A stretch of 64,000 nucleotides of DNA from Tubulanus polymorphus (taxonomy: Eukaryota; Nemertea; Palaeonemertea; Tubulaniformes; Tubulanidae), in the NCBI RefSeq assembly GCF_964204645.1, contig NC_134030.1, forward strand, positions 659,855-723,854, written 5' to 3'. How positions within the stretch are numbered: position 1 is the first letter of the stretch; each line of letters opens with the position of its first letter. The position numbers and the translations under genes are program-made. Below are positions 2,199-27,417 of this stretch, piece after piece. The notes beneath the pieces are model-generated. The model saw only the letters and a list, made by a program, of their open reading frames with translations, did no database searches and had not been told where the DNA came from.

Positions 2199-2900
2199 GA
2201 GTTCCTGTGCAGGTATCCCGACTGTCGCGCGCCGATACCTGGGAAACTGAACCAGCTGAACCGTTGATTGACTGGTGACTGACCGTTACTAGAGAACCAG
2301 CGATCCTCCTCAGAGAAAGGAGTTGGGAAGCCGACCGTGCTTGTACAGCCGGCGACCGCTGTGATGTTCTGAAATAGAGACATCAATGGGCACATCGGCA
2401 GAAACTGTACTTTCTGTTTCCGGGACTTATCGGCCCGAACCCATAGATCTTCCGACCACAATCCGCAAGTCGAGGAAGGATTAACTCATATAACGCCCGA
2501 TGTAGCCCAACAGGATGAACACAGAACGTAATCAGGGCCCGAACAGATGACCGCATCCCTCACGATGACGACGCTCGACTTTAGCAGGGAGCGGCATTAT
2601 CGCATTCAAAATACAACAATTAAATATTCGGTTTAAATATAACAGATATTTTAATGTTATAACTTACATAATATTATAACATACACGCAATTCAAGAAAG
2701 ATGCACTGATTTGATTTGATTCAAACAAAAATAAAATTCACGAGGGAACAAAAACAGAACAAACTCACTGCATAGAAAGTACAAGTGTCTCTTAAATTCC
2801 TAAATCCCTTAGAGACAAAATCAAACACCTTCTTATAAAAAACGCCAAGAAAAAGGATGGCTAAATGCAATACAGCAGAGCCGGGTCGTATAGAAAAACC
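2199..2900. other. Unassigned sequence between satellite and micro-exon cluster
   Basis: No convincing exon, RNA gene or repeat was recognised. A minus-strand open frame at 2150-2461 overlaps the satellite edge and looks accidental. The part after ~2600 is AT-rich. Confidence 0.4.
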
Positions 2901-3064
2901 GCTGGCGATCATTCAATCCAAATTGGCAAAAAACATAGGAAAGGGTCCGGTACTCGATGGAAATATGACGTCACGGAGTTATGAAAACTAGTCACAACTT
3001 TAACCGTTTTAACGCCATACAAAAAATTGAATGCGTTGAAATTGTATTTGAAGACTGAACTTAC

Positions 3065-6000
3065 TTCTTGCTTGCAAGTCGGGAGGCGTCTCCGGCGGGA
3101 GGGGTGCGCTGTTGCTGCTGCTGCTGTTGTTTGACAACTGTAAATAGAAATAATATATAAATCAATGCAACAGAAAATGAACACAACAGGCACTTATTAC
3201 ACGGTAGTTCAGTAGAATGAAGGGGTCTGGGTACAAAAACGTGTATTCTAAGATTACTAGTATATATTTTCTTGAGGAATTTCATAAAAATGGTTACATT
3301 AGGAGGGAAGTGAGGCATGTGAGATTGAGGGCGTCACTGATACTTACATTAAGCGACGGCGACCTTGCCTCTGAGGCAAACTGATGCTAAAATGAAAATA
3401 AAAAAAATACATTAGTCAAATTCATTAACGGTTGAATTTTTAAACATTTTCATTATGACGTTCATTAGTTCAAGGTGCTGGTTTTTTAGACAATTTCAAT
3501 AAGAGAAAAGTATTCAGGTATAGCTAGCACTATATCAGGAACGTAGCTTGAGGCGGTTCGGGGGGGTTCGAAAATTCAGTTCCTCGCAAAGAAAAATTAA
3601 AAACAGAAATGTTAAACTTACAAATATTAAAATTTGTTCATTTAATCAAAACCTCGTTAAATCAATCTCCCAGAGGCAATTTATCTGGGCACGTTTTCAA
3701 AATTTGTTTTGGTTAGGGGGCCCCGTTCTGGTCCAGTCAAACGCTACGGACCTGTCTATGGCAATAGCTAATCAACATTGATATAATTATCACCGGTCGC
3801 TGTGGTCAATACACCGTGCATTGTTAAACTTGATAGGCGTTCATTTCCTGTATATGAGGGCGCTGCTGGTTACCTCGCTTCAGTATTAGGGAATAGATGG
3901 AGCCACTTGTCGAAGCATGCTCGATTTATAAAGCTAACTCCACTGTATAGATGGCGCCACTCACCATGATTTCCACGGAAACAAGAATATATACTTAGTA
4001 AGTAGAATATGAGTGGGAAGGGTTTCAAGCGTAATATCAAAATATTGATTTGATTGGTTTAAAAATCTCCAAAACGCTTTCGTTTCACAACAAAGTTAAA
4101 CATCCGTTTTCTAACTTTACTTTACTTCACACGCCAAACAATGGGATACCCGCAGTCTTACTGTAGCAATCGAGGATTCCACTTATGGCAGGCGAGGATC
4201 CACCAGGTGTCGCTAGTAAATAGTTTGTCGTCTGCGTTCGATTTTCTTGTACATTTCAATTAAATCTGAATGAATTGTTCTCTTAAATGAATCAATTATT
4301 AATGAAAACTAAACCGATATCAGAGTAGAAGAATGAAAGTATTTCTTCTTCAAACCAGTTCAAAGTTCATCGAAAATGAACTAATTTTGACAACGAACAA
4401 CCTACTACTCGTTGCGCCATCTGGTGGAATAGCTGGTTTTGCGGGTATCCCATAAATCAAATATCACACTTATGGCGCCATCTAACGGTTAAAGTAGTTT
4501 ATTAATATAAGGTGACGAACACCTTTTAAACATTGGAACGAGGAAATACAACAGATTGATATCATACATTGACACGCGAGACCAAAGACTCTTATACAAC
4601 AGACCCTTAACTCAAAAAGTCAATATGAAAAATAGCAATTTCATTACATTTATCACAAATCTATTGATTCACAGCAGGTTCATATTTGCTGTGTTTTGAT
4701 CCAATTACAAGACCGATATCAATGTATGGTATATCAATATATTATCAAAATATTAACGGTATAACTAGGGGTGCAGGGACCCACTTTGGAAGTGGTCTGA
4801 AATGGTCGACGATCTGACATTTTCAAATTTAACTCCCCCTGGTTTAAAAGGAACCAAAGACATTGAAACTCACTACACATATACAGAACATGTCATGAGA
4901 TTATTTATAACTTTATTTATAACTAGAGCAAAAACCTGCTCTATACCGATATATATTAAACTCTGATTTCAATGTAATATAACAACAGAATTGATCCTTA
5001 AAATCTGCTAAAGTGCTAATTTTGCCGGGGAAAAAAATGGACATACAAGTGCGCCATCTTAATTCCAATTGCGCCGATATTTTGAGTTTGAGTATATAAA
5101 CCAATTATCAACACGATAAATCAAAAACTACCCGAGACAACTGGACGCAAAGTGAACGCAATAACTATAGTCCCGAGTGAGATAAAAAATAAATTAGTTT
5201 GAACTTAAAATTCAAGATCAATGTTTAATCTCTTACGTCCACGTGCTGTATCGGTGATAAATCCTGTAAAGATAAAATAAAACAAAATATTAGATGGATA
5301 TTCATGAATGCATGTATCACTGATTCAGGTTTTCAATAAAAACTGTTTCACAAATGATAGGTAAATTTTGCAGCAAATTCTCCAAGATTAGAACAAAACC
5401 AGTAGTTATATAGTAGAGGTTTTTGGGTCATGAAGCAAATGAAGTAGTAAATATAACACTTAATTTAAATGACAACTTTAGAGATAGCATCATTAATATA
5501 TGACTTCTACGATGATGAGACTTAATCGAATTTGAATTTATTCCTAATTAGCATAATTTATACATAACAGCTACTACCCTCTATTTTCAAATTACAAATT
5601 GAAATAAGCGTGATTTATTAGAAAATAGTTATCACTTACCGGTGTAGAAGAACCGCTCGGCGGCGTTGTTGGTAAAAACTGAAAATACAATCAAAGACAA
5701 TGTTAAAAACCTGATCTGATTTGTATAGTGTAAGTAAATGGTTTTGGGGTCGGACCAAATTTCTGTAAATGTGAGTGAAATCAATCGAAGTTTGTCCGAA
5801 CTGGTTTTTCAGTTTTTCTCCACTCGTCTATAACGGGCTATCAATCAATATGGTCGAAAGTGCAGAATGTTCCAGCTGATAAAAACTGGGTTCCAAAATA
5901 ATCAGCCCTTTGCATGTGATGATGCGAACGATCAGGCTGGGTGCACCCTGGTATAGATTTGACGATGCAGTAATGTATGACGGACATTACCTGTCAGTAG

Positions 6001-6121
6001 CAGAAGCAGGGTTTAATATTCTATATATATAAATTTCGGTTTCAAGCTCAAGAATGATGACTTCAAACAGGCGTTTACGATAACTTACGTCTATTCCGGA
6101 CATAGAAATATTAAATTTTGG

Positions 6122-6165
<44 letters not shown>

Positions 6166-7405
6166 GCTGCGCTGTACCCTATAAAAGAGAAAACATATTC
6201 ATACAATGACAAGAAATAGGACAGACGCGAAATCAGAGTTTATCTAACAGTTTATCTCCAGGACGGATGTGGCTGTGAAATCAAACAGTTTATCTCTAGG
6301 ATGGACACGTCTGTTAACTGTTGCCACTGGTTACCTCGAAAAAACCGTTCCTGATATAACTAAATAGTTTCCATAGCAACCAGACGAGGTCAAACAATGC
6401 AAATTGAGAGATAATAAGGTAATGGATTCGAGGGGGCAGCAGACTACAGTAGACTCGGCCACCCTACTCGGTACCCGGTTGAAATTGCATACACATTTTC
6501 TGATCCTTAACGTAAAAATCCTAAAATTTTAAAAAGTTGGTATTCGGTTAATTAATGGTCCAAATAGAACAGAGTTAAGCGGAGTCTGCTGTATCATCAT
6601 TTTGATATTGATGCCTATAATTTTAGAGAATGTCGATATTTAATGGAACAATACATTTAGCCGATCCAGAAAAATTTCATAAACGTAATTCTAACCATTT
6701 CTTCCTTTTTTTTCATTTTATTTTTTTTTTTCATTAGTGGTGAGACGAAAATGACGTCATCGACTCACTACCATCTTACGTCATGAAGCTCAAAAATAGG
6801 ATAAATGTTCTCATGTATCGCCATGGGAACGTTGGGACCCATAATTGGTGCCACTACCTAAACGTTACTGTTGCCATGGATACCACAAAGAAACTTAAAT
6901 AAATAGTTTCCATAGCGACCAGACAATGTTAAACAATGCAAATTTAGAATGGAGAGAAATGAGGCTATGGGTTGGGCAACAACTAGCAGCGCATACAGTA
7001 ACTAATCACGATTCAATACAATATTTTTATTCTTATATCTTTACTTTTAGAGAATATCGATATTTTACTAAACGATGCATTGAGCAGAAATCCAGAGAGA
7101 TCCAGAAATATTTCACCAACGTTATATTCAATATTTTTTTTTCTTTTTTTTCATTCTAGATGCAATTCAGGGCCTAGTTTCACAAACAGGTTTAACTCTT
7201 AAATCGATTTAATTTCTTCATTAATTCAGTTTATCTTAAATCGATTAAGGCGTTTATCCTTTTTGTGAAACTGGACCCAGGGGTACAAAATACTAAGTAT
7301 GGGATGAATAAATTAGCATGGAAGCAGTAAATTTGTACTTACTTTATTATACGGGCTTGAATGTGAGGGGCCCGCACCCCGTGTTTTTTTTACAGCTTTT
7401 GGCAT
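3065..7405 (-). CDS. Micro-exon gene of unknown function, minus-strand copy (3' end not found)
   Basis: Six short exons with good GT/AG borders join in one frame: 7405-7343 (MPKAVKKTRGAGPSHSSPYN plus Lys, starting exactly at an ATG), 6178-6089 (GTAQ, poly-Gln, PKFNISMSGID), 5678-5640 (FLPTTPPSGSSTP), 5263-5237 (DLSPIQHVD), 3386-3348 (HQFASEARSPSLN), 3137-3065 (LSNN, Ser run, PLPPETPPDLQAR). Lengths are 63, 90, 39, 27, 39 and 73 nt; all junctions are phase 0 except the last, which exits in phase 1. About 110 codons are covered. No signal peptide, membrane segment or known domain is visible; the product would be basic at its start and largely disordered. The plus-strand relatives end in a DECPF exon entered in phase 1, so a matching terminal exon is expected but is not seen before the left edge. 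A possible 5' UTR exon ends at 9667 with a GTAAGT donor. Confidence 0.5.
7169..7284. mobile_element. Small palindromic MITE
   Basis: Ends pair as GGGCCTAGTTTCACAAA and TTTGTGAAACTGGACCC, with two inner ATCGATTTAA/AAATCGATTA half-sites. About 115 bp, non-coding. A partial copy of one end is at 18184-18230. Confidence 0.6.
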
Positions 7406-7474
7406 CTAGAAAAACAAGTAAAAATATTAAATCATTTGAAAATATATCAGTCAGTCTTATTCTGGTTCAGTGAA

Positions 7475-8571
7475 CTAATTCTCTATATGGTGCATGTAGG
7501 GGTCCAGGGACACCACATCCACTAATTCTCTATATGGTGCATGTAGGGGTCCAGGGACACCACATCCACTAATTCTCTATATGGTGCATGTAGGGGTCCA
7601 GGGACACCACATCCACTAATTCTCTATATGATGCATGTAGGGGTCCAGGGACACCACATCCACTAATTCTCTATATGATGCATGTAGGGGTCCAGGGACA
7701 CCACATCCACTAATTCTCTATATGGTGCATGTAGGGGTCCAGGGACACCACATCCACTAATTCTCTATATGGTGCATGTAGGGGTCCAGGGACACCACAT
7801 CCACTAATTCTCTATATGGTGCATGTAGGGGTCCAGGGACACCACATCCACTAATTCTCTATATGGTGCATGTAGGGGTCCAGGGACACCACATCCACTA
7901 ATTCTCTATATGGTGCATGTAGGGGTCCAGGGACACCACATCCACTAATTCTCTATATGGTGCATGTAGGGGTCCAGGGACACCACATCCACTAATTCTC
8001 TATATGGTGCATGTAGGGGTCCAGGGACACCACATCCACTAATTCTCTATATGGTACATGTAGGGGTCCAGGGACACCACATCCACTAATTCTCTATATG
8101 GTGCATGTAGGGGTCCAGGGACACCACATCCACTAATTCTCTATATGATGCATGTAGGGGTCCAGGGACACCACATCCACTAATTCTCTATATGGTGCAT
8201 GTAGGGGTCCAGGGACACCACATCCACTAATTCTCTATATGGTGCATGTAGGGGTCCAGGGACACCACATCCACTAATTCTCTATATGGTGCATGTAGGG
8301 GTCCAGGGACACCACATCCACTAATTCTCAATATGGTGCATGTAGGGGTCCAGGGACACCACATCCACTAATTCTCTATATGGTACATGTAGGGGTCCAG
8401 GGACACCACATCCACTAATTCTCTATATGGTGCATGTAGGGGTCCAGGGACACCACATCCACTAATTCTCTATATGGTGCATGTAGGGGTCCAGGGACAC
8501 CACATCCACTAATTCTCTATATGGTGCATGTAGGGGTCCAGGGACACCACATCCACTAATTCTCTATATGA
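7475..8571. repeat. 47-bp minisatellite, about 23 copies
   Basis: Highly uniform unit (CTAATTCTCTATATGGTGCA...) repeated every 47 bp with rare single-base variants. It lies about 70 bp upstream of the first minus-strand micro-exon. The same repeat occurs in inverse orientation at 17562-17985 and 25150-25275, each time just upstream of an MPKA exon. Confidence 0.95.
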
Positions 8572-8624
8572 AACTTGAAGGCAACTGGGATTGCAAATCT
8601 TGATATGATGATTGACAAAAACAC

Positions 8625-9045
8625 AAAGACAGCGATCTAACCCAAAAACAGCGATCTTACACAAAAACAGCGATCTTACACAAAATAGCGATCTAACCTA
8701 AAAACACCAATCTAACACAAAAACAGCTTTCTAACCCAAAAACAGCGACCTAACAAAAAACTGCGATCTAACCTAAAACAGCGATCCAACCTAAAACAGC
8801 GATCTAACAAAAAACTGCGATCTAACAGAAAAACAGTGTTCTAACCCAAAAACTGCAATCTAACCTAAACACTGCGGTCTAACCCAAAAACAGCGATCTA
8901 ACACAAAAACTGTGATCTAACACAAAAAGTGATCTAACACAAAACAGCAATCTAACCAAAAACGGTGATCTAACCTCAAAACAGCGATCTAACCTAAAAA
9001 CTGCGATCTTACCTAAAAACTGCGATCTTACCCAAAAACAGCGAT
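8625..9045. repeat. Degenerate ~19-bp tandem repeat
   Basis: Variants of ACAGCGATCTAACCCAAAA repeat with many small indels. Intronic or upstream of the minus-strand micro-exon gene. Confidence 0.8.
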
Positions 9046-11179
9046 TGAAAAGGTGATTTCATATTCACATTTTGATTATCTATAATATCGTGAAATGATG
9101 AATTCATTAATTTGATTCAATTGAATTAATTTTTAAGTCGGCATTTTAGACAAAATGAAAATCAAACATCTCCATCCTAAATTCTTCTTAATTTTAATTT
9201 TGGTTGAGAAAACCAATTGATTTCAGTGATTTATATCTTCAAATTCCAAATAAGAAAATCAACTCTGCCATTGGGCCGCAATCGAAGTCCGGATCCGTCG
9301 TTTAGCATTCGTGTTTTTCAAAAATTCAAACGTTTCGAATCACTATGATCATCAAAAATTGTTTTTGAATCGAATCCATGATGAGTCAATAGTTAGGTAA
9401 CTATTGCTGGATTTAAAAACAGTCAGTTTGAGGTAGGTTGATGATGTTTGAAGGGCTGAAATGGACGCTCAATACCTCGGTCTCTAAATAAGGGATAAAA
9501 ATTAACCTTATATGTGCACTTTCGAGCTAAACTACTATGACACCTAATCATTGTCTACAAGAGCTGTGCTAAAGTAATCATTTAAAGTCAATCGATCATT
9601 TATAGAGGCCTTAGTTTTGAGTTTTTTTACACTACAATTTTTGATCAAAGATGTAAAATATACTTACGTCGTAATGTCTGTGAAACGAATGATTCGATCA
9701 GCTGACAGCTGGTCATCGTTCAGTAAACCGCACTGACCTCAACCAATCAACACGCGGCTTAATACATTTAACATTCAAACTACTTGTATGCAAATCACAA
9801 ACGCGGAAGTAAGTGGACCGGAAGAAAGTGGCGAACGATTCTACGGATCAGTCTTCTGAACCGACGGCATCACATAAATCAGTTTTCACCTATTCTAAAA
9901 CCGGTATTAGATTTTATCAGATTTACTATTAATACTTTGGTTAATATGGCTGTCATTTTAATAAGATAATTCAAAATTCAAAGTAAAATGAATATCTCCG
10001 TTCATAATTTTTCAGAAATGATTTTTCATCGTAGACTGGTTGCCCGTTCATTCCCGCGCAATGAACATTGTCAGTTAGACTGGTTACCGGGCTCTATCAG
10101 GCTACTGAATTGACGACTTCGCACATCGGTTTTCACTAATGCAAATTGTTGAGCTTTGGCAGATTTATCTTATGAAGATAATAAAAATTTTGTAGTCAAT
10201 ATGAGAAAATATTTCAGAATCTGATATGAAATGAATATTTCCGTCAACCATATTTCAGTAATGGTTTTTCAATGTAGACGGATCGTGAGGTGGCTAGACT
10301 GGTTACCGGTCTCTATGGGACAAGCAACCAGTCTATGCTCCGACTCACCTACCAGTGTATGGAATACCTCCACTCCGGCGTTCGATTGCCAGGGCACGGA
10401 ATCTTGCCCGCATTTATACAATTCTTTTCATGCACGCCGCGCTTTATTATGCAAGTTATTAGATGTTGTATGCTGTAGTACAGTGAACTCTGAAGGTTTA
10501 GTTTGGGCTATTCACGCGATCACGCCCCGCCAAAGAGTTATCCCTGCAGACTAATCATCGTAAACCAGAGAAGCGTTCCGGTATCCATTTTTGAGGATAC
10601 ATCTTCACGTGTCGGGGTTTGATTGCCTCCCACCGATCCAAGCCAACACGAACCCTGCGGCTAGTGCAGATCACTCTTTGGTCTTCTGTTCTTCGGCCTC
10701 GTCGAACTGAATTCAGTTTGTCCGGATTTCTAATAGTGACGCATGCAAGAAGTGAGGAAAAGAGGCATCCGAAAACTCCATAGACTCCTGAAGTTAAAGA
10801 CATAGGGTTCAGTTAATGCCTTTCTACTTGATGTTTCTAGAAGATACGGAAAGGACCAAAACTCAAAATCCCCACTAAAACAGGGATGTATTTAATATGG
10901 TTTCATCGTTTCATCATTTGAAGTGAACGTAAACAGCTTGAAAATAAAAACTACCACGAAAATATATCTTAAACTAAATTCAATTTCAACACGATTATTT
11001 GTTTACATCAATTTCACCCAGCGGCGTTTGTTATCGAACTGTGACTGAGTTTATATTCATTATCAGATCTGAAATAGTTCCCGTTATAGCTGCACAGAAA
11101 AACGAGTCTATCATGATGTTCCAACTACTCAACTACTGTGGCATGCGAGTAATAAATTCACTTTTCCGATACATATCGA

Positions 11180-11330
11180 TTAAGGGGCAGCACTAGACGG
11201 TTCAAGATTTTAGACAGCTCGCTATGATTCTACTCTGGCAAGCGAGCTATAAGTTAGTTCACAGATTTACCGCTATTGATTTGTTTAGGGGCAGCACCTG
11301 ACGGTTAAGACATTGAAGAGCTCTGTATCT
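11180..11330. repeat. Interspersed repeat with GGCAGCAC and GTTCACAGATTTACCGCT motifs
   Basis: Two adjacent units start AGGGGCAGCAC..GACGGT. Related units lie at 31670-31800 and, inverted, at 32338-32460. Probably an old transposon family. Confidence 0.45.
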
Positions 11331-14061: not shown

Positions 14062-14316
14062 ACACGACCACCGCCAAAAAAAACTCGCACGAAAAGGAAA
14101 AGAAAAGTTGCGGTCGTCGTGGCTCCTCAGGGAGGGGAGGCAAGAGTTGCCCCTGCGGATGGCGCAGCTGATCAAGGCAATCAGGAGGAAGGGGTAAGAA
14201 TTAATAGGAAGAGGCCGAGGAGGGATGGTGGTGGGGCTGGGGATGGTGCGGGTCCTGCTCCTCCATCCGTATCTCGGGCGGTCACTCGTTCACTCGCCCA
14301 AAAAGCTGGCGAGTGA
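14062..14316 (+). CDS. Basic, nuclear-signal terminal exon, copy c
   Basis: An 85-codon exon follows a strong acceptor (TTTCTCTTTACAG) in phase 0. It starts TRPPPKKTRTKRKRKV, passes through a Gly/Ala/Glu-rich centre, repeats a basic cluster (NRKRPRRD) and ends AQKAGE-stop. The two basic clusters look like nuclear localisation signals. Phase 0 entry matches the phase 0 exit of the DECPF exon ending at 17369, but that exon lies downstream, so how the two would join in a transcript is unresolved. A GTAAGA at 14196 inside the exon could act as an internal donor. I recognise no family. Confidence 0.45.
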   Translation, partial: TRPPPKKTRTKRKRKVAVVVAPQGGEARVAPADGAADQGNQEEGVRINRKRPRRDGGGAGDGAGPAPPSVSRAVTRSLAQKAGE

Positions 14317-14849
14317 TCGAGTTGCCCGAGTGGTAGAGGTGGTGGCCCGGCATACTGATGGAGAGTGGAGGGAGCCACTTCGTTCGGGGACAATTCCGGA
14401 TTTGTTTTGATGTGCCTAATATGCCTTTACTGTAAAAGAATTTTAACATATACCAATGAATAAACGCATGACAGTTTCTAGTTTTTGATCATCTAAAATG
14501 TACAAAAGAGAAGCCAATCAGCGAATCAGAGAAAGTAGACCTCAGCAGTGAGGGGAACAAGTCAGAGCTCCGCTCTCGGTTCTACAGAGCTTTTGAAAAT
14601 ATAATGTCAAAACCTTTTGGGCAGAGGCTGCTTGTGAGCCGACTGTTCCTGGATTGATAGAGCTCCCTCTACATGCATGCTTAAACCACCAGCAAATCAA
14701 AACAAACAAACCACAACAAACATGGAAAAGTGGTTCAGAGAATAAATCCGAGTAATGAGGATCAAGGAAGTTATGGTGGGACAGGAAGACACTGAGTGAT
14801 TCATGAATGTGTCTACCTACATGCAACTACTTTGTTCTTGAATTCCTGA

Positions 14850-15150: not shown

Positions 15151-15165
15151 CAAACAAAGAAAACA

Positions 15166-16131: not shown

Positions 16132-16190
16132 TTTTTGCCAAAAACGCCGCCCAGCGGGGTTTCGACACCGGTTTATCGCCTACTACGCCG
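16132..16190 (+). CDS. FLPKTPPSG module exon with extended 3' end, copy 1
   Basis: After an acceptor (TGTATTTTCAG) the exon reads FLPKTPPSGVSTP, as in the 39-nt minus-strand exon, then 20 extra bases to a GTAAGT donor. The usual donor after STP is here GTTTAT, so the exon was extended by mutation and exits in phase 2 instead of 0. Confidence 0.4.
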
Positions 16191-16355: not shown

Positions 16356-16420
16356 TTTTTGCCGACAACGCCGTCCAGCGGTTTACCGCCACTGCCACCA
16401 GTTTACCGCCTACTACGCCG
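16356..16420 (+). CDS. FLPTTPSSG module exon with extended 3' end, copy 2
   Basis: Tandem neighbour of the previous exon, within a ~229-bp repeated unit (copies start near 15966 and 16195). It reads FLPTTPSSGLPPLPPVYRLL and ends at a GTAAGT donor, 65 nt, phase 2. It shares the same 20-nt 3' extension. Confidence 0.4.
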
Positions 16421-16434
16421 GTAAGTGATAACTT

Positions 16435-17330
16435 TTTTCTAATAAATCACGCTTATTTCAATTTGTAATTTGAAAATAGAGGGTAGTAGCTGTTTTGCAT
16501 AAATTACGCTAATTAGGAATAAATTCAAATTCGATTAAGTATCATCATCGTAGAAGTAATATATCAATGATGCCATCTCTACAGTTGTCATTTCCATTCA
16601 TGAATATCCATCTAATAATTTGTTTTATTTTTACAGGTTTTTTCACCAATCCAGCACGACAGCGATATCTATTTCAAGTTCAAACTAATTAATTTTTTTT
16701 ATCTCACTTGGGACTATAGTTATTGCGTTCACTTTTCATCCGTCCGTAGACGAAATCCAGTTTGCATTAATTATGCTAATTATTCACTGTCACGTCACAC
16801 AATCCTTACACAAATATAAGTAATAAATACATATATAAGACTGATACACGTAACAAAGAGTTCAGCAGGTGCCGTGTGATATCGTTAAACCAATTATTGG
16901 TTAAACGACAAAGTTTGGAATCTCTGGATGCTCAAACAGTAAATCTCATCAGGAAATCATAGATAACGAATAATTGTACAATTTAACTGCTGAATAAAAA
17001 TAATTTCAATTACTGAAGTTACATTGAAATCATACTTCAGTAAAATCAGGCGCCCCCTGTTGGAATGATATTCATAGCCGTAGCATCGAAACCATTCGAC
17101 TTGTTGTTTAATGTATTTCTCTCTATTTTTATTTTACAGTGATGAACATATTAGACGAATGTCCGTTCGAGGATTTGGTGGGGGAATTCAAAAGAAACTT
17201 GGTTCCCGATAGGATACCACCACCGCTTAATCCTTTGTCGCCCGCTGCTGCCCCTCCCCCACGCCCAATAAATTCGCCTCAGCAGCGGCCTGTCAGACAG
17301 CCGCCCCCGGGTGCCAAAAGATGGTCAGAA
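16435..17330 (+). repeat. First copy of a ~0.9-kb tandem segment (second at 18837-19751)
   Basis: The segment carries the FSPIQH terminal exon, its polyadenylation signal and the DECPF exon. Offset about 2.40-2.41 kb, with few differences. The second copy diverges at SERVRG, where a chimeric junction occurs. Confidence 0.75.
16637..16819 (+). CDS. Terminal FSPIQH exon with stop and polyadenylation signal, copy 1
   Basis: After TTTTTACAG the frame reads VFSPIQHDSDIYFKFKLINF and continues through Tyr/Ser/Arg-rich sequence to a stop after 61 codons; AATAAA follows at 16822-16827. In the minus-strand copy the matching exon is only 27 nt and ends with a GTAAGA donor after DLSPIQHVD. Here the donor is destroyed and former intron is read as a C-terminal tail. 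Phase 0 entry does not match the phase 2 exit of the extended exon just upstream. Confidence 0.35.
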   Translation, partial: VFSPIQHDSDIYFKFKLINFFYLTWDYSYCVHFSSVRRRNPVCINYANYSLSRHTILTQI

Positions 17331-17369
17331 AGAGTCCGTGGGCGGCTGTTTGAAGGAGATCTGACGGAG
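17140..17369 (+). CDS. DECPF module exon, copy d1
   Basis: Preceded by TTTTATTTTACAG and followed by GTAAGA. The open frame enters in phase 1 and reads NILDECPFEDLVGEFKRNLV, then DRIPPP, an Ala/Pro-rich stretch, QQRPVRQPPPGAKRW and a tail ending in DLTE, exit phase 0. It is the best-preserved of three copies and the most protein-like module of the family, with an amphipathic first half. An ATG two bases into the exon could also serve as a start. No known domain recognised. Confidence 0.45.
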
Positions 17370-17985: not shown

Positions 17986-18058
17986 GTTCACTGAACCAGA
18001 ATAAGACTGACTGATATATTTTCAAATGATTTAATATTTTTACTTGTTTTTCTAGAAG

Positions 18059-19230
18059 ATGCCTAAAGCTGTAAAAAAAACACGGGGCGCGGGGCCCTCA
18101 ACATCGAGCCCCTATAATAAAGTAAGTACAAATTTACTGCTTCCATGCTTATTTATTCATCCCATACTTAGTATTTTGTACCCCTGGGTCCAGTTTCACA
18201 AAAAGGATTAACGCCTAAATCGATTTAATATTTTTACTTGTTTTTCTAGATTATGCCTAAAGCAATGAAAAAAAACACAGGGCGCGGGTCCAAGTACATC
18301 AAGCCCGTATGCAAAAAGAACCGAACAACAACAACAACAACAACAACAACGGTTCAATATTTCTATGTCCGGAATTGAGTTTTTGCCAAAAACGCCTGTT
18401 TGAAGTCATCATTCTTGAGCTTGAAACTGAAATTTATATATATAGAATATTAAACCCTGCTTCTGCTACTGACAGGTAATGTCCGTCATACATTACTGCA
18501 TCGTCAAATCTATACCAGGGTGCACCCAGGCAGATCGTTCGCATCATCACATGCAAAGGGCTGATTATTTTGGAACCCAGTTTTTATCAGCTGGAACATT
18601 CTGCACTTTCGACCATATTGATTGATAGCCCGTTATAGACGAGTGGAGAAAAACTGAAAAACCAGTTCGGACAAACTTCGATTGATTTGACTCACATTTA
18701 CAGAAATTTGGTCCGACCCCAAAACCATTTACTTACACTATACAAATAAGATCAGGTTTTTAACATTGTCTTTGATTGTATTTTCAGTTTTTGCCAAAAA
18801 CGCCACCCAGTGGTGTTTCTACGCCGGTAAGTGATAACTATTTTCTAATAAATCAGGCTTATTTCAATTTGTAATTTGAAAATAGAGGGTAGTAGCTGTT
18901 TTGCATAAATTATGCTAATTAGGAATAAATTCAAATTCGATTAAGTCTCATCATCGTAGAAGTAATATATCAATGATGCTATCTCTACAGTTGTCATTTC
19001 CATTCATGAATATCCATCTAATAATTTGTTTTATTTTATTTTTACAGGTTTTTTCACCAATCCAGCACGACAGCTATATCTATTTCAAGTTCAAACTAAT
19101 TAATTTTTTTAATCTCACTTGGGACTATAGTTATTGCGTTCACTTTTCATCCGTCCGTAGACGAAATCCAGTTTGCATTAATTATGCTAATTATTCACTG
19201 TCACGTCACACAATCCTTACACAAATATAA
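18059..19230 (+). CDS. Short micro-exon gene model: MPKA, FLPKTPPSG and FSPIQH modules
   Basis: Three exons join in phase 0: 18056-18121 (ATG at 18059; MPKAVKKTRGAGPSTSSPYN plus Lys), 18788-18826 (FLPKTPPSGVSTP), 19048-19230 (VFSPIQHDSYIYFK... to a stop), followed by AATAAA at 19233-19238. About 94 residues result. The fused pseudo-module at 18250-18394 would be skipped. Splice borders are strong (TTTTTCTAG and GTAAGT, TTTTCAG and GTAAGT, TTTTTACAG). The product is basic at its N-terminus with no signal peptide. Function unknown. A model from sequence only; the poly-Gln exon may also be used. Confidence 0.4.
18250..18394 (+). pseudogene. Intronless fusion of MPKA, poly-Gln and FLPKTP modules, copy m4
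   Basis: A strong acceptor leads into an MPKAMKK module with one extra A in its A-run (frameshift), then directly a poly-Gln module (FNISMSGIE in its own frame) and directly FLPKTPV and a stop. The junction between SGIE and FLPKTP is exactly where a spliced mRNA would join, after which intron-type sequence resumes. It looks like a piece of cDNA recombined into the locus. Confidence 0.5.
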
Positions 19231-19550
19231 GTAATAAATACATATATAAGACTGATACACGTAACAAAGAGTTCAGCAGGTGCCGTGTGATATCGTTAAA
19301 CCAATTATTGGTAAAACGACAAAGTTTGGAATCTCTGGATGCTCAAACAGTAAATCTCATCAGGAAATCATAGATAACGAATAATTGTGCAATTTAACTG
19401 CTGAATAAAAATAATTTCAATTACTGAAGTTACATTGAAATCATACTTCAGTAAAATCAGGCGCCCCCTGTTGGAATAATATTCATAGCCGTAGCATCGA
19501 AACCATTCGACTTGTTGTTTAATGTATTTCTCTCTATTTTTATTTTACAG

Positions 19551-19840
19551 TGATGAACATATTAGACGAATGTCCGTTTGGGGACTTGGTGAGGGAATTC
19601 AAAAGAAACTTGGTTCCCGATAGGATACCACCACCGGTTAATCCTTTGTCGCCCGCTGCTGCCCCTCCCCCACGTCCAATAAAAATGCCTCAGCAGCGGC
19701 CTATCAGACAGCCGCCCCCGGGTGCCAAAAGATGGTCAGAAAGAGTCCGTGGTAAACAAAAGGGAATTTCAATGAGCGAGGGCACCCTCACGTCCAGTAC
19801 AAACGATGGTGCTAGTACAAATTTACTGCGTCCATGCTAA
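19551..19840 (+). pseudogene. DECPF module, copy d2, with chimeric 3' end
   Basis: Near-identical to copy d1 up to SERVRG (NILDECPFGDLVREFKRNLV, with Pro-rich text and QQRPIRQPPPGAKRW). It then switches to sequence also present at 22001-22080 (KQKGISMSEGTLTSS) and stops at 19840. The breakpoint lies at a GGTAAAC shared with those loci. The GTAAAC at 19752 might act as a donor. The upstream ~900 bp is a tandem copy of 16.4-17.3 kb. Confidence 0.45.
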
Positions 19841-20024
19841 TTTATTCATACCAAATCAAAACAAACAAACCACAACAAACATGGAAAAGTGGTTCAGAGA
19901 ATAAATCCGAGTAATGAGGATCAAGGAAGTTATGGTGGGACAGGAAGACACTGAGTGATTCATGAATGTGTCTACCTACATGCGACTACTTTGTTCTTGA
20001 ATTCCTATAGAAAAAAATCAAGAC

Positions 20025-21245
20025 AACCAACAAACTCAAGACTGACCCATAGCTGCTGCTGCTGAAACAACCAACAAACTCAAGACTGACCCATAGCTGC
20101 TGCTGCTGAAATAACCAACAAACTCAAGACTGACCCATAGCTGCTGAAACAACCAACAAACTCAAGACTGACCCATAGCTGCTGCTGCTGAAATAACCAA
20201 CAAACTCAAGACTGACCCATAGCTGCTGAAACAACCAACAAACTCAAGACTGACCCATAGCTGCTGCTGCTGAAACAATCAACAAACTCAAGACTGACCC
20301 ATAGCTGCTGCTGCTGAAACAACCAACAAACTCAAGACTGACCCAGCTGCTGCAACAATCAACAAACTCAAGACTGACCCATAGCTGCTGCTGCTGAAAT
20401 AACCAAAAAACTCAAGACTGACCCATAGCTGCTGAAACAACCAACAAACTCAAGACTGACCCATAGCTGCTGCTGCTGAAACAATCAACAAACTCAAGAC
20501 TGACCCATAGCTGCTGCTGCTGAAACAACCAACAAACTCAAGACTGACCCATAGCTGCTGTTGCTGAAACAACCAACAAACTCAAGACTGACCCAGCTGC
20601 TGCAACAATCAACAAACTCAAGACAGACCCATAGCTGCTGCTGCTGAAACAACCAACAAACTCAAGACAGACCCAGCTGCTGCAACAACCAACAAACTCA
20701 AGACTGACCCAGCTGCTGCAACAACCAACAAACTCAAGACTGACCCATAGCTGCTGCTGAAACAACCAACAAACTCAAGACTGACCCAGCTGCTGAAACA
20801 ACCAACAAACTCAAGACTGACCCATAGCTGCTGAAACAACCAACAAACTCAAGACAGACCCAGCTGCTGCAACAACCAACAAACTCAAGACTGACCCAGC
20901 TGCTGCAACAACCAACAAACTCAAGACTGACCCATAGCTGCTGCTGAAACAACCAACAAACTCAAGACTGACCCAGCTGCTGAAACAACCAACAAACTCA
21001 AGACTGACCCATAGCTGCTGAAACAACCAACAAACTCAAGACTGACCCAGCTGCTGCAACAATCAACAAACTCAAGACTGACCCATAGCTGCTGCTGCTG
21101 AAATAACCAACAAACTCAAGACTGACCCATAGCTGCTGAAACAACCAACAAACTCAAGACTGACCCATAGCTGCTGCTGCTGAAACAATCAACAAACTCA
21201 AGACTGACCCATAGCTGCTGCTGCTGAAACAACCAACAACCTCAA
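20025..21245. repeat. CTG-rich minisatellite, large array
   Basis: About 30 units of 33-45 bp; length differences come from the number of CTG triplets and loss of CATAG. Several minus-strand frames of repeated SLEFVGC text arise from it and are not genes. It sits upstream of the poly-Gln exon at 21510. Confidence 0.9.
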
Positions 21246-21509
21246 GACAGACCCCCTCGAATCCATTACCTTATTATCTCTCAATTTGCATTGTTTGACC
21301 TCGTCTGGTTGCTATGGAAACTATTTAGTTATATCAGGAACGGTTTTTTCGAGGTAACCAGTGGCAACATTTAACAGGCGTGTCCGTCCTAGAGATAAAC
21401 TGTCTGATTTCACAGCCACATCCGTCCTGGAGATAAACTGTTAGATAAACTCTGATTTCGCATCCGTCCTATTTCTTGTCATTGTATGAATATGTTTTCT
21501 CTTTTATAG

Positions 21510-21575
21510 GGTACAGCGCAGCAACAACAACAACAACAACAACAACGGTTCAATATTTCGATGTCCGGAATTGAC
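21510..21575 (+). CDS. Poly-Gln module exon (GTAQ...FNISMSGID)
   Basis: Acceptor CTTTTATAG, then GTAQ, eight Gln codons, RFNISMSGID and a GTAAGT donor; 66 nt, phase 0 on both sides. It matches the 90-nt minus-strand exon 6178-6089, which has a longer Gln tract. Which transcript uses it is not clear. Confidence 0.45.
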
Positions 21576-22179
21576 GTAAGTTATCGTAAACGCCTGTTTG
21601 AAGTCATCATTCTTGAGCTTGAAACCGAAATTTATATATATATATAGAATATTAAACCCTGCTTCTGCTACTGACAGGTAATGTCCGTCATACATTACTG
21701 CATCGTCAAATCTATACCAGGGTGCACCCAGGCAGATCGTTCGCATCATCACATGCAAAGGGCTGATTATTTTGGAACCCAGTTTTTATCAGCTGGAACA
21801 TTCTGCACTTTCGACCATATTGATTGATAGCCCGTTATAGACGAGTGGAGAAAAACTGAAAAACCAGTTCGGACAAACTTCGATTGATTTCTTGTTTCTT
21901 GTTCAATAGTGACATATTGCAATAGAAAACCTGAAGCAGTGAACAGTAGAACTACAACCGTTTATTATAGTCAAAGTGGCTCCATCTGAAATGTTACCTC
22001 ATGGTAAACAAAAGGGAATTTCAATGAGCGAGGGCACCCTCACGTCCAGTACAAACGATGGTGCTAGTACAAATTTACTGCTTTCATGCTAATTTATTCA
22101 TACCATGATTACCATGATTACCACAATCTGATATATAATTTATTTTCAAATGATTTTATAGTTTTACTTATTTTTCTAG

Positions 22180-22247
22180 ATAATGCCGAAAGCAGTGAAA
22201 AAAACGTGGGGTGCGGGCCCTCAACATCAAGCCCGTATCCTACTGTT
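22180..22247 (+). pseudogene. Frameshifted MPKA module, copy m5
   Basis: Strong acceptor and ATG (22183), but one base is missing in the Gly-Pro stretch, so GPSTSSPY is read out of frame, and the donor GTAAGT has become GTTAGT. The same lesions occur in copy m8 (24407), showing they were duplicated after decay began. Confidence 0.5.
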
Positions 22248-22452
22248 AGTACAAATTTACTGTTTCCATGCTAATTTATTCATGATTAAGAATAGTTGTA
22301 AGAAAGTACTGAACTGTTTGACTGGCTCGATATATGATATATTTTCAATTTATTCATGATTAAGAATAGTTGTTAGAAAGTACTGAACTGTTTGACTGGC
22401 TCGATATATGATATATTTTCATATTATTATATATTATAACTAATGTTTTTAG

Positions 22453-23575
22453 ATGTCAAAAGCCACCAAAAAGGCACCCAGCGGACAAGGGGGTCCCTCT
22501 ACATCAAGTCCATATGCACCTGTGAGTACAAATTCATCGCTTCATGCTAATTTATTAACTAATGAACGTTACAATAAAAATGTTGAAAATTTAATTTTTA
22601 ATGAAATTGACTAATATATTTATATTATTTTTTAATTTCTAGCGTCTCTACTTTGGGTCGCCAGGCCGATCGCCACCTCTGAATTCGGATAACAACAACA
22701 GCAGCAGCAGAAGCGCATCTCTTCCGCCAGAGACGCCTCCCGACTTCCAAGCGCGAAGTAAGTTCAGTCTTCAAATACAATTTCAACGCATTCAATTTTT
22801 TGTATGGAGCTAAAACGGTTAAAGTTGTGACCAGTTTTCATAACTCTGTGTCGGGGGCCGCTAACCAAAACAAATTTTGAAAATGTGCCCATCAATCAAA
22901 TTGCCTCTGGGCGATTTCTATTGATATAACGAAGGTTTTGATTAAATGAACAAATTTCAATATTTGTAAGTTTAACATTTCTGTTTTTAATTTTTCTTTG
23001 CGAGGAACTGAATTTTCGAACCCCCCGAACCGCCTCAAGCTACGTTCCTGATATAGTGCTAGCTATACCTGAATATTTTTTTCTTATTAAAATTGTTTAA
23101 AAAACCAGCACCTTGAACTTAGCAACGTTAATGAATTTGACTAATGTATTTTTTTATTTTCATTTCTAGCGTCGGTTTGCCTCGCAGGCAAGGTCACCGC
23201 TGCTAAATGTAAGTATCAGTGACGCCCTCAATCTCACATGCCTCACTTCCCTCGTACGTGCCGGTTTTTATGAAATTCCTCACGGAAATATATACTAGTA
23301 ATCTTAGAATACACGTTTTTCTACCCAGACCCCTTCATTCTACTGAACTACCGTATAATAAGTGCCTGTTGTGTTCATTTTCTGTTGCATTTATTTTTAT
23401 ATTATTTCCATTTACAGTCGGTGAATCACAGCAGCAGCAGCAGCAGCAGCAGCGCACCCCTCCGGAGACGCCTGTTTCTAATCGGTCAAATAACAACAGC
23501 AACAGCAGCAGCAGCAGCAGCAGCAGCGCACCCCTCCGGAGACGCCTGTTTCTAATCTGTCAAATAACAACAACA

Positions 23576-23606
<31 letters not shown>

Positions 23607-26600
23607 TAGCACCCCTCCAGAGACGCCTCCCGACTTTCAAGCACCAAGTAAGTTCAGTCTCCAAATACAATTTCAATGCTTTCAATTTTTTTGTATGTAG
23701 TTAAAAGTTGTGACCAGTTTTCATAACTCTGTGTCGGGGGCCCGCTAACCAAAACAAATTTTGAAAATGTGCCCATCAATTAAATTGCCTCTGGGAGATT
23801 CCTATTGGAGGAGCGGCTTCGTTCGGGGACAATTCCGGATTTGTTAACTGATCTAAAGAATATTCTTTCAGTGAAGGGATATGCCTTGAACGCATGAGTC
23901 GTTCATGTGCGCCTAATATGCCTTCACTGAAAAAAAATCAACTATAACATGTACCACATATTTTTTGATTTAATTTTAGTCCAATTCCACAATTATTTCG
24001 GCTTACAATAGTGTCTTCAATTCTTTAAAGCCCAAAGCACCTTTTTGACTCAACATTCGGTATGAAGGTGGCCGGGAATTGGGCCGGCCTGTTTTCTTTC
24101 CGTTTCTGTCTCACGCCCAGCATAATTCATTTATATCATGCTTAAGAATAAGGCAAGTAAAAGTACTTAACTGTATGAGAGGCTAGATATATTTTCAAAT
24201 GATTTAATATTTTTACTTTTTCTATATGCCTAAAGCTGCAAAAACGCCCAGTGGGCGAGGGCACCCTCACGTCCAGTACAAATGGTGCTAGAACAAATTT
24301 ACTGCGTCCATGCTAATTTATTCATACCATGATTACCATGATTACCACAATCTGATATATTATGTATTTTCGAATGATTTTATAGTTTTACTTATTTTTC
24401 TAGATAATGCCGAAAGCAGTGAAAAAAACGTGGGGTGCGGGCCCTCAACATCAAGCCCGTATCCTACTGTTAGTACAAATTTACTGTTTCCATGCTAATT
24501 TATTCATGATTAAGAATAGTTGTTAGAAAGTACTGAACTGTTTGACTGGCTCGATATATGATATATTTTCAATTTATTTAATATTATTACTAATTTTTTT
24601 AGATATCAAAAGCCACGAAAAAGGCACCCAGCGGACAAGGGCGTCCCTCAACATCAAGCCCATATGCTCCTGTAATTATAAATTCTTTGCTTTCATGCTA
24701 ATTTTTTAATTAATGAACGTCATAATAAAAATGTCGAATGAAATTGACTATTTATATTATTTTCATTTCAAGTGTCTGTCTTTTGGCTCACTAGCGAGAT
24801 CGCCGCCTCTCAATTCAAACAGTCACAACTAAAAAGATCTTATTTGGATTAAAATCATTGATTATTGCACTCTGTTTGTCCTGTGGTACGACGTTAAACT
24901 GCCTCTTTTTAACAATACGTTTTATCCATACATTTTATCAGTGATTTTTATCTGTTTGTCCTGTGGTATGACGTTAAACTGCCTCTTTTTAACAATACGT
25001 TTTATCAATACATTTTATCAGTGATTTTTATCTGTTTGTCCTGTGGTATGACGTTAAACTGCCTCTTTTTAACAATACGTTTTATCCATACATTTTATCA
25101 GTGATTTTTATCTATTTGTCCTGTGGTACGACGTTAAACTGCCTCTTTTTAACAATACGTGTCCCTGGACCCCTACATGCACCATATAGAGTGGACCCCT
25201 ACATGCACCATATAGAGAATTAGTGAATGTGGTGTCCCTGGACCCCTACATGCACCATATAGAGAATTAGTTCACTGAACCAGAATAAGACTGACTGATA
25301 TATTTTCAAATGATTTAATATTTTTACTTGTTTTTCTAGAAGATGCCTAAAGCAACAAGAAAAACACGGGGCGCGGGCCCCTCACATTCAAGCCCGTATA
25401 ATAAAGTAAGTACAAATTTACTGCTTCCATGCTTATTTATTCATACCATGCTTAAGAATAGTTGTAAGAAAGTACTGAACTGTTTGACTGGCTCGATTAT
25501 ATGATGTATCTTCAATTTATTTAATACTTTTACTTTAAATTTTTCTATTAATATCATTATATCATAGTTATTTTACTAGATGCCGAAAGCTCAGAGAAAA
25601 ACAGGGGGCGCAGAAGCTTCAACTTCCAGCCCGACCTCCAGCCCATAAGCTGCTGCAATTACAAATGTACTGCTTCCATGCTAATTATTCATACCATGCA
25701 TTACAACAATGCCTAAAGCAATTAGAAAAACCTGGGCCGCGGGCCCCTCAAGTTCCAGCCCGTATGCTACTGTAAGTACACATTTACTGTTTCCATGCTA
25801 ATTTATTCATGATTAAGAATAGTTGTAAGAAAGTACTGAACTGTTTGACTGCCTCGATTATATGATGTATCTTCAATTTATTCAATACTTTTACTTTAAA
25901 TTTTTCTATTAATATCATTATATCATAGTTATCTTACTAGATGCCGAAAGCTCAGAGAAAAACAGGGGGGGCAGACCCTTCGACTTCAAGCGGCTAAGCT
26001 GCTGCAATTACAAATGTACTGTTTTCATGCTAATTTATTCATACTTTGTTAAGAATAAGTGTAAGAAAGCATTGAACTGTTTGACGGACTCATTATAAAA
26101 TGTATTTTCAAATGATTTTTACTTATTTTTCTAGATGCCAAAAGCAGGTTTCAAGCCAATGCAATCTGCAATCTGTTTATAGAAAAGCCAAAGATTCAGA
26201 TTTTAAATGAATTTTTATCTGTTGATCACCTGAAACGCCACTTTTCTCAAGGGAGGGACATTTAGGATTGACCTCTGAATGAACCCTGTCTGTTGATATC
26301 TTACGTAAATGGGTTAGAAAAATACAAATCCTTATTTGGGAACTGGACACACTTAGGTTCAGTTACATAATTCTATGGATTCAGTTCATCTCATTAAAAC
26401 AAACAGCTCTTATTCAAACTAGTTTTGTCAAGCAGGAACACTTGCTTTTAGAATTCGTCGTGCGTTCCGGCGGGAGGAGTTTGTACGTTTATTTCTACCG
26501 AAGTGTAAGTAGTTTAACTATTTTCATACAATATCATTTAGTGTGACGTGTGTCACTGATAATCAAAATCTAATAATAACTGTTGTTCCCTAGTATTAAC

Positions 26601-26937
26601 ATTGTGCAATTGAAATCCTATAGTTGTTTTTAGAAAGGATAGATGGCGCCATCAATGTGACAATCGATTGTAAAGTTTAAGAAATGAATGTTTAACCTCG
26701 CCGAGTACCAGAATTCTTAACCGTAGCATCGAAACCATTCGACTTGTTGTTTAATGTATTTCTCCCTATTTTTATTTTACAGTCATCAACATTTTAGACG
26801 AATGTCCGTTCGGGGAATTGGTGGAGGAATTTAAAAGAAACTTGGTTCCCGATAGGATATTACCACCACCTTTGTCGCCCGCTGCTGCCCCTCCCCAAAA
26901 TCGGATTAATACGCCTCAGCAGCGGCCTATCAGATAG
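22453..26937 (+). CDS. Micro-exon gene model: MSKA, ARSP/PPETPPD and DECPF modules
   Basis: Three exons join in frame: 22453-22521 (MSKATKKAPSGQGG, PSTSSPYAP, phase 0), 22643-22757 (RLYFGSPGRSPPLNSDNNN, Ser run, SLPPETPPDFQAR, exit phase 1), 26783-26937 (INILDECPFGELVEEFKRNL..., ending QQRPIR-stop). The total is 339 nt, 112 residues. The middle exon fuses two modules that are separate exons elsewhere (3386-3348 and 3137-3065 on the minus strand). All borders have GT/AG consensus. The long last intron contains many decayed module copies. No signal peptide or known domain; low-complexity and probably disordered outside the DECPF part. Sequence-only model. Confidence 0.4.
23170..23208 (+). CDS. 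ARSPxLN module exon (RRFASQARSPLLN)
   Basis: 39 nt, phase 0, with acceptor TTTCTAG and donor GTAAGT. Closest to the minus-strand exon 3386-3348 (HQFASEARSPSLN). The exon that follows it is broken, so it may not contribute to a product. Confidence 0.4.
23418..23647 (+). pseudogene. Expanded, frameshifted Ser/PPETPP module
   Basis: Splice borders are intact but the exon contains three tandem CAG-rich units with TPPETP text in different frames. Read in phase 0 it reaches a stop in the second unit. Length 230 nt compared with 73 in the minus-strand copy. CAG-run expansion and unit duplication have broken the frame. Confidence 0.4.
23807..23945 (+). pseudogene. Fragment of the 3' part of the nuclear-signal exon
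   Basis: Matches the ~130 bp after the stop of exon copy b (13610-13750), including a frame that reads SGTIPDLLTDLKNILSVKG and ends at a stop. The basic part is absent; the fragment abuts intron sequence of the neighbouring module. Confidence 0.45.
24226..24671 (+). pseudogene. Three decayed MPKA modules, copies m7, m8 and m9
   Basis: m7 (24226) starts MPKAAKTPSG but its acceptor TCTAG has become TCTAT. m8 (24404) shares the one-base deletion and donor loss of m5. m9 (24603-24671) has ATA in place of ATG and a GTAATT donor but otherwise reads SKATKKAPSGQGRPSTSSPY, so it could still act as an internal phase 0 exon. Confidence 0.4.
24871..25160. repeat. 80-bp tandem repeat, about 3.6 copies
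   Basis: Units start TCTGTTTGTCCTGTGGTA at 24871, 24951, 25031 and 25111. The fourth breaks off into the 47-bp minisatellite family. Confidence 0.9.
25150..25275. repeat. 47-bp minisatellite remnant, 2-3 units
   Basis: Partial units of the 47-bp family, one internally deleted, immediately upstream of the MPKA exon at 25340. Confidence 0.85.
25340..25405 (+). CDS. Intact MPKA module exon, copy m10
   Basis: 66 nt, phase 0, TTTTTCTAG acceptor and GTAAGT donor, reads KMPKATRKTRGAGPSHSSPY plus Asn-Lys. As at 18056 and 7405, a copy of the 47-bp minisatellite lies just upstream. No downstream partner exon other than the DECPF exon at 26783 is in sight, and that needs phase 1. Confidence 0.4.
25580..26180 (+). 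pseudogene. Four variant MPKA modules, copies m11 to m14
   Basis: m11 (25580-25648; MPKAQRKTGGAEAST, then stop), m12 (25709-25771; MPKAIRKTWAAGPSSSSPYA, good GTAAGT donor but no acceptor), m13 (25941-25997; MPKAQRKTGGADPST, then stop) and m14 (26135; MPKAGFKPMQSAICL-stop). m11, m13 and m14 have acceptors and in-frame stops, so they could serve as alternative terminal exons; more simply they are decaying copies. Confidence 0.4.
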
Positions 26938-27417
26938 CTGCACACCAGATAGAATGGGAGGGCAATTACCTAAAATTACCTTAGCAATGTTAGATTAAAG
27001 CGTGCAATGACTACTGGTGATAATAAGGAATCAAACTAATATGCTGTCAATAGTTTGAGCAAAAGTCACATTTCAAGCAACACATGCTAATGACACACAC
27101 ACAAGTGAAATCGATATATCGAGTGTTCAGACACAAGACGGTAGTTTCCAGCAAGAATTATCCGTTAAAACCAAATGATAACAGAGTGAAATTATCCTTT
27201 CATTTCCAAGAACAGCATCCAAATTGGAAAATTTCACAATTTATATATTTTTGACATTATAGAAGGGGCACGGACCCATCCAGATCAAGTATTAACATCA
27301 AGCCTTTCAACTATTCCAAAAGGCTTTCCCAGTGACATCATCATTGAGAAACCAGGTCAAGCTATGATTACTAGTTTTGCTCATTTTCACGCAGTACTTC
27401 TCAACGGCTAAGAGCTG

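What the first reader, a model, noticed from the sequence alone, without database searches (positions are those of the whole stretch)
2900..27000. Family of phase-0 micro-exons forming a two-armed, inverted gene cluster with no recognised relatives
Seen: the same short exons occur on the minus strand (3.0-7.4 kb) and plus strand (13-27 kb), with splice sites and frames kept. Exon lengths are mostly 27, 39, 63, 66, 69 and 90 nt, all multiples of three, so modules can be skipped or duplicated without frame damage. Known: schistosome micro-exon genes and similar systems use symmetric tiny exons to diversify proteins by splicing. Inference: this locus may make many variants of a small, basic, disordered protein. 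I recognise none of the modules. This is the best candidate for an undescribed system in the window.
Basis: partly seen in the sequence, partly recalled or inferred. Interest (0 to 1): 0.8.

Follow-up and report, generated by a model that had tools for sequence, protein, structure and literature searches.

The report
Tandem gene array with hypervariable micro-exons
The repeated tiny exons belong to an unnamed animal gene that has been copied into long tandem arrays on several chromosomes, and its front exons differ greatly from copy to copy, even at silent positions, while the introns beside them and the last exon stay almost identical, which is unusual and unexplained.

Summary
The minus-strand "arm" is exons 1-6 of an intact 8-exon gene. 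Its exons 7-8 lie left of the window. The plus-strand "arm" is a rearranged, mostly broken copy. This gene-plus-broken-copy pairing recurs seven times on one chromosome. Thirty-four loci keep the complete last exon: C6 18, C3 10, C8 6. The C6 units are about 33 kb and ~97% alike. More distant paralogs sit on C9, C11 and C8. Frame-preserving indels and silent-biased changes in the last exon show that the genes are coding and constrained. No match was found in Pfam, NCBIfam, PHROGs, PDB sequences, Rfam or IMG/VR.

Splicing-based diversification is not supported. What is striking is diversity among gene copies. Exons 1 and 3 differ by 12-15% among 28 copies, but the 60 bp of intron on each side by only about 0.5-1%. 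The excess is mostly silent (pS 0.32-0.36 against about 0.01 in introns; pN/pS 0.14-0.22) and stops at the splice sites. Exon 8 behaves normally. I read this as old exon variants kept distinct while introns are homogenised by conversion and unequal crossing-over. An exon-targeted process is not excluded. Function is unknown; a nuclear, largely disordered protein with a conserved C-terminal domain is inferred.

The parts
7343..7405 (-). Exon E1 of the intact (type A) gene, MPKAVKKTRGAGPSHSSPYNK; 63 nt; hypervariable among copies
   Evidence: AG|ATG...|GTAAGT
6089..6178 (-). Exon E2, GTA-polyQ-PKFNISMSGID, 90 nt (84-102 nt in other copies, always a multiple of 3)
5640..5678 (-). Exon E3, FLPTTPPSGSSTP, 39 nt (39/45/48 in other copies); hypervariable
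5237..5263 (-). Exon E4, DLSPIQHVD, 27 nt
3348..3386 (-). Exon E5, HQFASEARSPSLN, 39 nt
3065..3137 (-). Exon E6, LSNNSSSSNSAPLPPETPPDLQAR, 73 nt, ends in phase 1; E7 and E8 of this gene are outside the window at C6:652483-652253 and C6:651118-650723 (minus)
7474..8570 (.). 47-nt minisatellite next to E1, shared by the units examined
8620..9045 (.). 19-nt minisatellite, part of the repeated unit
1..2204 (.). 40/56-nt minisatellite inside the E6-E7 intron of the minus-strand gene
   Evidence: matches the same intron in unit L031-L035
13378..13741 (+). Type B segment: broken copy of exon E8 (frame-shifted), though the last ~55 codons ..KKLASDRVAREVEVVARHTDG..LSVKGY read open
14065..14406 (+). Type B segment: second broken E8 copy, premature stop after SLAQKAGE
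16132..16170 (+). Type B segment: E3 copy, FLPKTPPSGVSTP, splice sites present (further partial copy at 16356; full copy at 18788-18826)
17140..17369 (+). Type B segment: intact E7 copy (DECPF module), phase 1 in, phase 0 out; partial copies at 19551 and 26783
18059..18121 (+). Type B segment: intact E1 copy
21510..21575 (+). Type B segment: E2 copy with splice sites
22183..22244 (+). Type B segment: frame-broken E1 copy (62 nt); a second at 24407-24468
23170..23208 (+). Type B segment: E5 copy, RRFASQARSPLLN
23418..23650 (+). Type B segment: E6-like poly-serine copies
25343..25405 (+). Type B segment: intact E1 copy, letter-identical to E1 of the array copy at C6:1506616
25580..26000 (+). Type B segment: three decayed E1-like modules
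26783..26935 (+). Type B segment: truncated E7 copy ending in a stop

Best explanation
This is the left end of a large tandem array of a multi-copy animal gene with no relative found here. Shown: each regular unit (~33 kb on C6) carries one 8-exon gene (MPKA - polyQ/NISMSGID - FLPTTPPSG - DLSPIQHVD - HQFASEARSPSLN - SNNSSS - DECPF - C-terminal exon), predicted to make a ~324-residue basic protein rich in low-complexity sequence, with nuclear-localisation-like runs and a constant C-terminal domain. The window shows the 5' half of one intact copy (minus) and, head-to-head with it, a rearranged, largely broken copy (plus); this pair recurs seven times on C6. Shown: front exons E1 and E3 (and in part E2, E5) vary strongly between copies at silent and replacement sites, up to the splice sites, while adjacent introns and exons E7-E8 are nearly uniform. 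Inferred: unequal crossing-over and gene conversion keep units young and introns uniform, whereas old variants of the short front exons escape homogenisation, because diversity there is favoured and mismatches block conversion, and are reshuffled between copies and chromosomes. Inferred: the constant C-terminus does a fixed nuclear job while the front end differs between copies.
For: Array: C6 units at ~33.2-kb spacing, two neighbours ~97% identical; 34 loci with complete E8 on C6/C3/C8; E1-E6 found beside them. Coding: E2 lengths 84/87/90/102, E3 39/45/48 and E6 70/73/76/82/85/91 all preserve frame; one frame-shifted E1 in 28 copies. Purifying selection on E8: the last 80 codons show 8-9 silent against 0 replacement changes between C6 or C3 and C8:15.83 Mb, whose intron 7 does not align; C8:15.155 Mb has 12-13 silent against 3 replacement codons with unalignable flanks. 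Exon-restricted variation: E1 pi 0.147 against 0.0045/0.0082 in flanking 60 bp; E3 0.125 against 0.0057/0.0100 (28 copies); E1 pS 0.36, pN 0.08, intron 0.016; E3 pS 0.32, pN 0.045, intron 0.008; E8 pS 0.02, flank 0.017; E1/E3/E5 variable columns against intron, Fisher P = 5e-23. Reshuffling: both E1 3'-half haplotypes (SHSSPYNK/STSSPYNK) occur on C6 and C3; 67 of 210 site pairs in E1 fail the four-gamete test.
Against: No RNA evidence; exon calls rest on splice sites, frame and homology. If silent variants merely hitchhike with selected ones, frequent recombination inside 63 bp should have removed them; their persistence (all four bases at two fourfold sites of E1) is not well explained by conversion plus selection. 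pN/pS of 0.14-0.22 shows no positive selection on E1 or E3 as a whole. A few introns also contain divergent islands. An upstream coding exon before E1 is possible, because the segment between the splice acceptor and ATG is always 0 or 3 nt.
Confidence: 0.6

Rival explanations
1. Exon-targeted mutation or exon-limited templating (for example conversion from spliced cDNA of divergent paralogs) introduces variation into E1-E3 only; purifying selection then removes most replacement changes.
For: Diversity ends at the splice sites and includes the 2-3 nt between acceptor and ATG; silent diversity is 23-40 times that of introns; all four bases occur at two fourfold sites of E1.
Against: E7-E8 of the same genes show no such excess; conserved tracts at the 3' end run about 400 bp past the stop codon, beyond a likely short 3' UTR, so tracts are not transcript-limited there; variants are shared between C3 and C6, which suggests old rather than freshly made variation.
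Confidence: 0.15
2. Conflict at the RNA level: the inverted, broken type B segments make antisense or small RNAs against the genes, and silent changes in front exons are favoured because they escape them (a Stellate / Suppressor-of-Stellate-like situation).
For: Each of seven type B segments on C6 lies head-to-head with an intact gene and carries repeated E1 and E3 modules, the exons with most silent diversity.
Against: No small-RNA data; no evidence that type B is transcribed; it also carries E5-E8 copies, whose silent diversity is lower.
Confidence: 0.07
3. Micro-exon genes of the schistosome type: alternative splicing of symmetric micro-exons creates protein variants.
For: E1-E5 are symmetric phase-0 exons, three of them 27-39 nt.
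Against: Very short exons make up 105 of 975 coding nt; no signal peptide is apparent; E8 alone is 393 nt; the unit gene is linear with single exons.
Confidence: 0.06
4. Positive selection on the protein for variety, as in venom toxin families with conserved introns.
For: Codon 5 of E1 carries T, V, L, M, N, I or Q; E5 within C6 has only replacement changes; E7 pN/pS is about 1.
Against: E1 and E3, the most variable exons, have pN/pS 0.22 and 0.14.
Confidence: 0.08
5. A mobile element or endogenous virus multiplied across the genome.
For: Copies on several chromosomes, inverted arms, presence in debris.
Against: No transposase, polymerase or other element protein in the 33-kb unit or the window's arms; copies are tandem units with shared minisatellites, not dispersed; no relative in viral contigs or PHROGs.
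Confidence: 0.04

Closest known systems
Schistosome micro-exon genes (MEGs)
   Same: Several short symmetric exons in one gene; lineage-restricted multi-copy genes.
   Different: MEG coding regions consist mostly of tiny symmetric exons and all products have a signal peptide (PMC4350168); here 11% of the coding sequence is in exons of 39 nt or less, no signal peptide is apparent, and variation is between gene copies.
Viper three-finger toxin genes (ASSET) and conotoxin superfamilies
   Same: Introns highly similar between paralogs while exon segments differ (PMC2474615, PMC3862624).
   Different: There the exon change alters the protein radically. Here most exon change in E1/E3 is silent, there is no cysteine framework or signal peptide, and the last exon is invariant.
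Sea urchin 185/333 family
   Same: Large tandem family with mosaic exon variants and conversion-like shuffling.
   Different: In 185/333 the intron is about three times more diverse than the second exon (PMC1988830); here the reverse holds, and the protein shows no resemblance.
MHC-like intron homogenisation
   Same: Old exon alleles in young, homogenised introns (from general knowledge; not tested here).
   Different: No sequence relationship; exon diversity here is mostly silent and sharply bounded at exon ends.

Membership tests
Schistosome micro-exon genes | Most of the coding region in very small symmetric exons | tested here: not met
   Exons 63, 102, 39, 27, 39, 82, 230 and 393 nt; exons of 39 nt or less total 105 of 975
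Schistosome micro-exon genes | Signal peptide, secreted or membrane-anchored product | tested here: inconclusive
   By inspection the N-terminus MPKATKKTRGAGPSHSSPYNK has no hydrophobic stretch; no dedicated predictor was run and an upstream exon is not excluded
Schistosome micro-exon genes | Isoforms by exon skipping | not testable with these tools
   No RNA data
Toxin families with accelerated exons (ASSET) | Replacement changes in exons exceed silent changes; introns conserved | tested here: not met
   Introns conserved (met), but pN/pS 0.22 (E1) and 0.14 (E3)
Transposable element family | Encoded transposition enzymes and dispersed copies | tested here: not met
   No such domain in the ORFs checked; copies in tandem arrays
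Transposable element family | Thousands of copies genome-wide | tested here: not met
   About 40-114 matches per exon, in a few clusters; counts are lower bounds because only the best candidates are scored
Sea urchin 185/333 | Intron more diverse than exon; two-exon gene | tested here: not met
   Eight exons; exon diversity exceeds intron diversity
Any catalogued protein family | Profile match above cut-off | tested here: not met
   Pfam, NCBIfam, PHROGs and PDB sequences: none significant

The most novel reading that the evidence does not exclude
The genome holds a tandem gene family in which a process confined to the mature-message part of the gene (exon-limited templating, exon-targeted mutation, or selection by small RNAs from the inverted broken copies) keeps the short front exons highly diverse at the nucleotide level while the protein, the introns and the last exon are conserved.
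Probability: 0.2. Interest if true: 0.85.

Novelty: new variant of a known kind. Interest (0 to 1): 0.55.

Why it matters
Silent sites in an exon should not be older than the intron ten bases away. In this array they look about twenty to forty times more diverged, in the front exons only, next to a last exon that behaves normally. Either a known process (conversion plus selection) can leave very sharp islands at exon edges, or something acts on exons or on the mature message. The many near-identical copies make this testable. The family also has a conserved C-terminal domain (L..L.S.R...EV.VVAR...G.WEE.L.S.....LL.DLK..L...GY) that matches no catalogued family.

Tried and rejected
Mobile element or endogenous virus: no element proteins, tandem rather than dispersed copies, no viral-contig relative. 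Known protein family or solved structure: none; the weak DUF6508 hit (E 0.0095, below its cut-off) covers 27 residues and is taken as chance. Structure of the C-terminal domain from the window's own copy: pLDDT 59, too weak to search with. Known RNA in window, unit or introns: none. Search for an upstream coding exon through peaks of divergence between the unit and the window: only minisatellites and E3 stand out. A cDNA-templated origin for the whole gene: weakened because the conserved 3' tract runs ~400 bp beyond the stop codon. Naming the species through assembly size in papers: nothing. One script gave no result because of a wrong option and was repeated.
Full report
WHAT IS IN THE WINDOW. 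The window is C6:659855-723854 of an unnamed 268-Mb genome, taken as an animal's because of spliced genes and an NWD1-like NACHT/WD40 gene at 53-58 kb. On the minus strand six exons with canonical borders lie at 7405-7343 (E1), 6178-6089 (E2), 5678-5640 (E3), 5263-5237 (E4), 3386-3348 (E5) and 3137-3065 (E6); the five introns between them are phase 0. On the plus strand from 13.4 to 27 kb the same modules appear in jumbled order, some intact and many broken.

THE GENE IS LARGER THAN THE WINDOW. Genome searches put a DECPF exon (E7) and a C-terminal exon (E8) of the minus-strand gene at C6:652483-652253 and 651118-650723, left of the window. A complete neighbouring unit (L031-L035) shows the plain order E1 63, E2 102, E3 39, E4 27, E5 39, E6 82, E7 230 and E8 393 nt, one gene per ~33.2-kb unit; E6-E7 is phase 1, the rest phase 0. 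The predicted product is about 324 residues: low-complexity and basic, with KKTRTKRKRK and RKRPRR runs that look like nuclear-localisation signals (by inspection).

THE ARRAY. Eighteen loci on C6, ten on C3 and six on C8 keep the whole E8 frame; E1 and E3-E6 are found beside them where searched. Neighbouring C6 units are about 97% identical, minisatellites included. Distant paralogs (about 42-52% identical) occur on C9, C11 and C8:13.96 Mb, several as inverted pairs about 7.5 kb apart.

IT IS CODING AND CONSTRAINED. Length variants of E2, E3 and E6 all preserve the frame, and one of 28 E1 copies is frame-shifted. In the last 80 codons of E8, copies at C8:15.83 Mb and on C6 or C3 differ at 8-9 silent and no replacement sites, although intron 7 no longer aligns. 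C8:15.155 Mb shows 12-13 silent against 3 replacement codons, with flanks at random identity. The two subfamilies share L..L.S.R...EV.VVAR...G.WEE.L.S.....LL.DLK..L...GY.

THE ODD PART. Between array copies the front exons are more diverged than the introns. In a four-copy alignment, E1+E3+E4+E5 differ at 7-24% of sites and introns at 1-3.6%. In 28 copies, E1 diversity is 0.147 against 0.0045 and 0.0082 in the flanking 60 bp; E3 is 0.125 against 0.0057 and 0.0100. The excess is mainly silent: E1 pS 0.36, pN 0.08, intron 0.016; E3 pS 0.32, pN 0.045, intron 0.008. E8 in the same genes has pS 0.020 with flanks at 0.017, and E7 pS 0.023. Two fourfold sites of E1 carry all four bases. Both main E1 haplotypes occur on C6 and C3, and E1 fails the four-gamete test at 67 of 210 site pairs. 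Intronic islands exist but are few. Fisher's test for E1/E3/E5 against introns gives P = 5e-23; related copies are not independent, so this is a guide only.

HOW IT MOST LIKELY WORKS. Shown: a tandem family with an invariant C-terminal exon and variable front exons. Inferred: units spread by unequal crossing-over, and introns are kept alike by conversion. Old exon variants persist because diversity there is favoured and mismatched stretches resist conversion; variants are swapped between copies and chromosomes. This is the general mechanism I judge most likely, but the silent excess is larger and more sharply bounded than it comfortably predicts. An exon-limited process, or RNA-level conflict with the type B segments, therefore stays open. 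What the protein does is not known; a nuclear role is an inference from its basic runs.

COMPARISON WITH WHAT IS KNOWN. Schistosome micro-exon genes are defined by coding regions made mostly of tiny symmetric exons and by signal peptides (PMC4350168); the first is not met, and no signal peptide is apparent by inspection. Viper three-finger toxins and conotoxins show conserved introns with changed exons (PMC2474615, PMC3862624), but there the change is in the protein, whereas here pN/pS is 0.14-0.22 in the most variable exons. In the sea urchin 185/333 family the intron is more diverse than the exon (PMC1988830), the reverse of this case. No catalogued protein, RNA or viral relative was found.

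LIMITS.

Noticed in passing
window 53088-57904, minus: Large exons of an NWD1/NWD2-like NACHT-WD40 gene (HTH_NWD1, AAA_16/NACHT and beta-propeller matches) beside the array.
   Followed up: partly
G000 C8:15155183-15172302, plus: Seven E8-like exons in a row at about 2.7-kb spacing; the first is complete (flanks unrelated to other copies), the others partial.
   Followed up: partly
G000 C9 and C11 (for example L066): Divergent subfamily arranged as inverted pairs about 7.5 kb apart, with glutamate/proline-rich insertions before the shared C-terminal domain.
   Followed up: partly
window 18056-18058 and equivalents: The stretch between the E1 splice acceptor and ATG is always 0 or 3 nt and variable; this fits trans-splicing or 5'-UTR splicing next to ATG, or an unseen upstream coding exon.
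   Followed up: partly
window 57938-58575: 27-nt minisatellite open in several frames on both strands, next to the NWD1-like gene.
   Followed up: no
window 20023-21254: Interlocked 36/44/82/126-nt repeat array in the type B segment.
   Followed up: no
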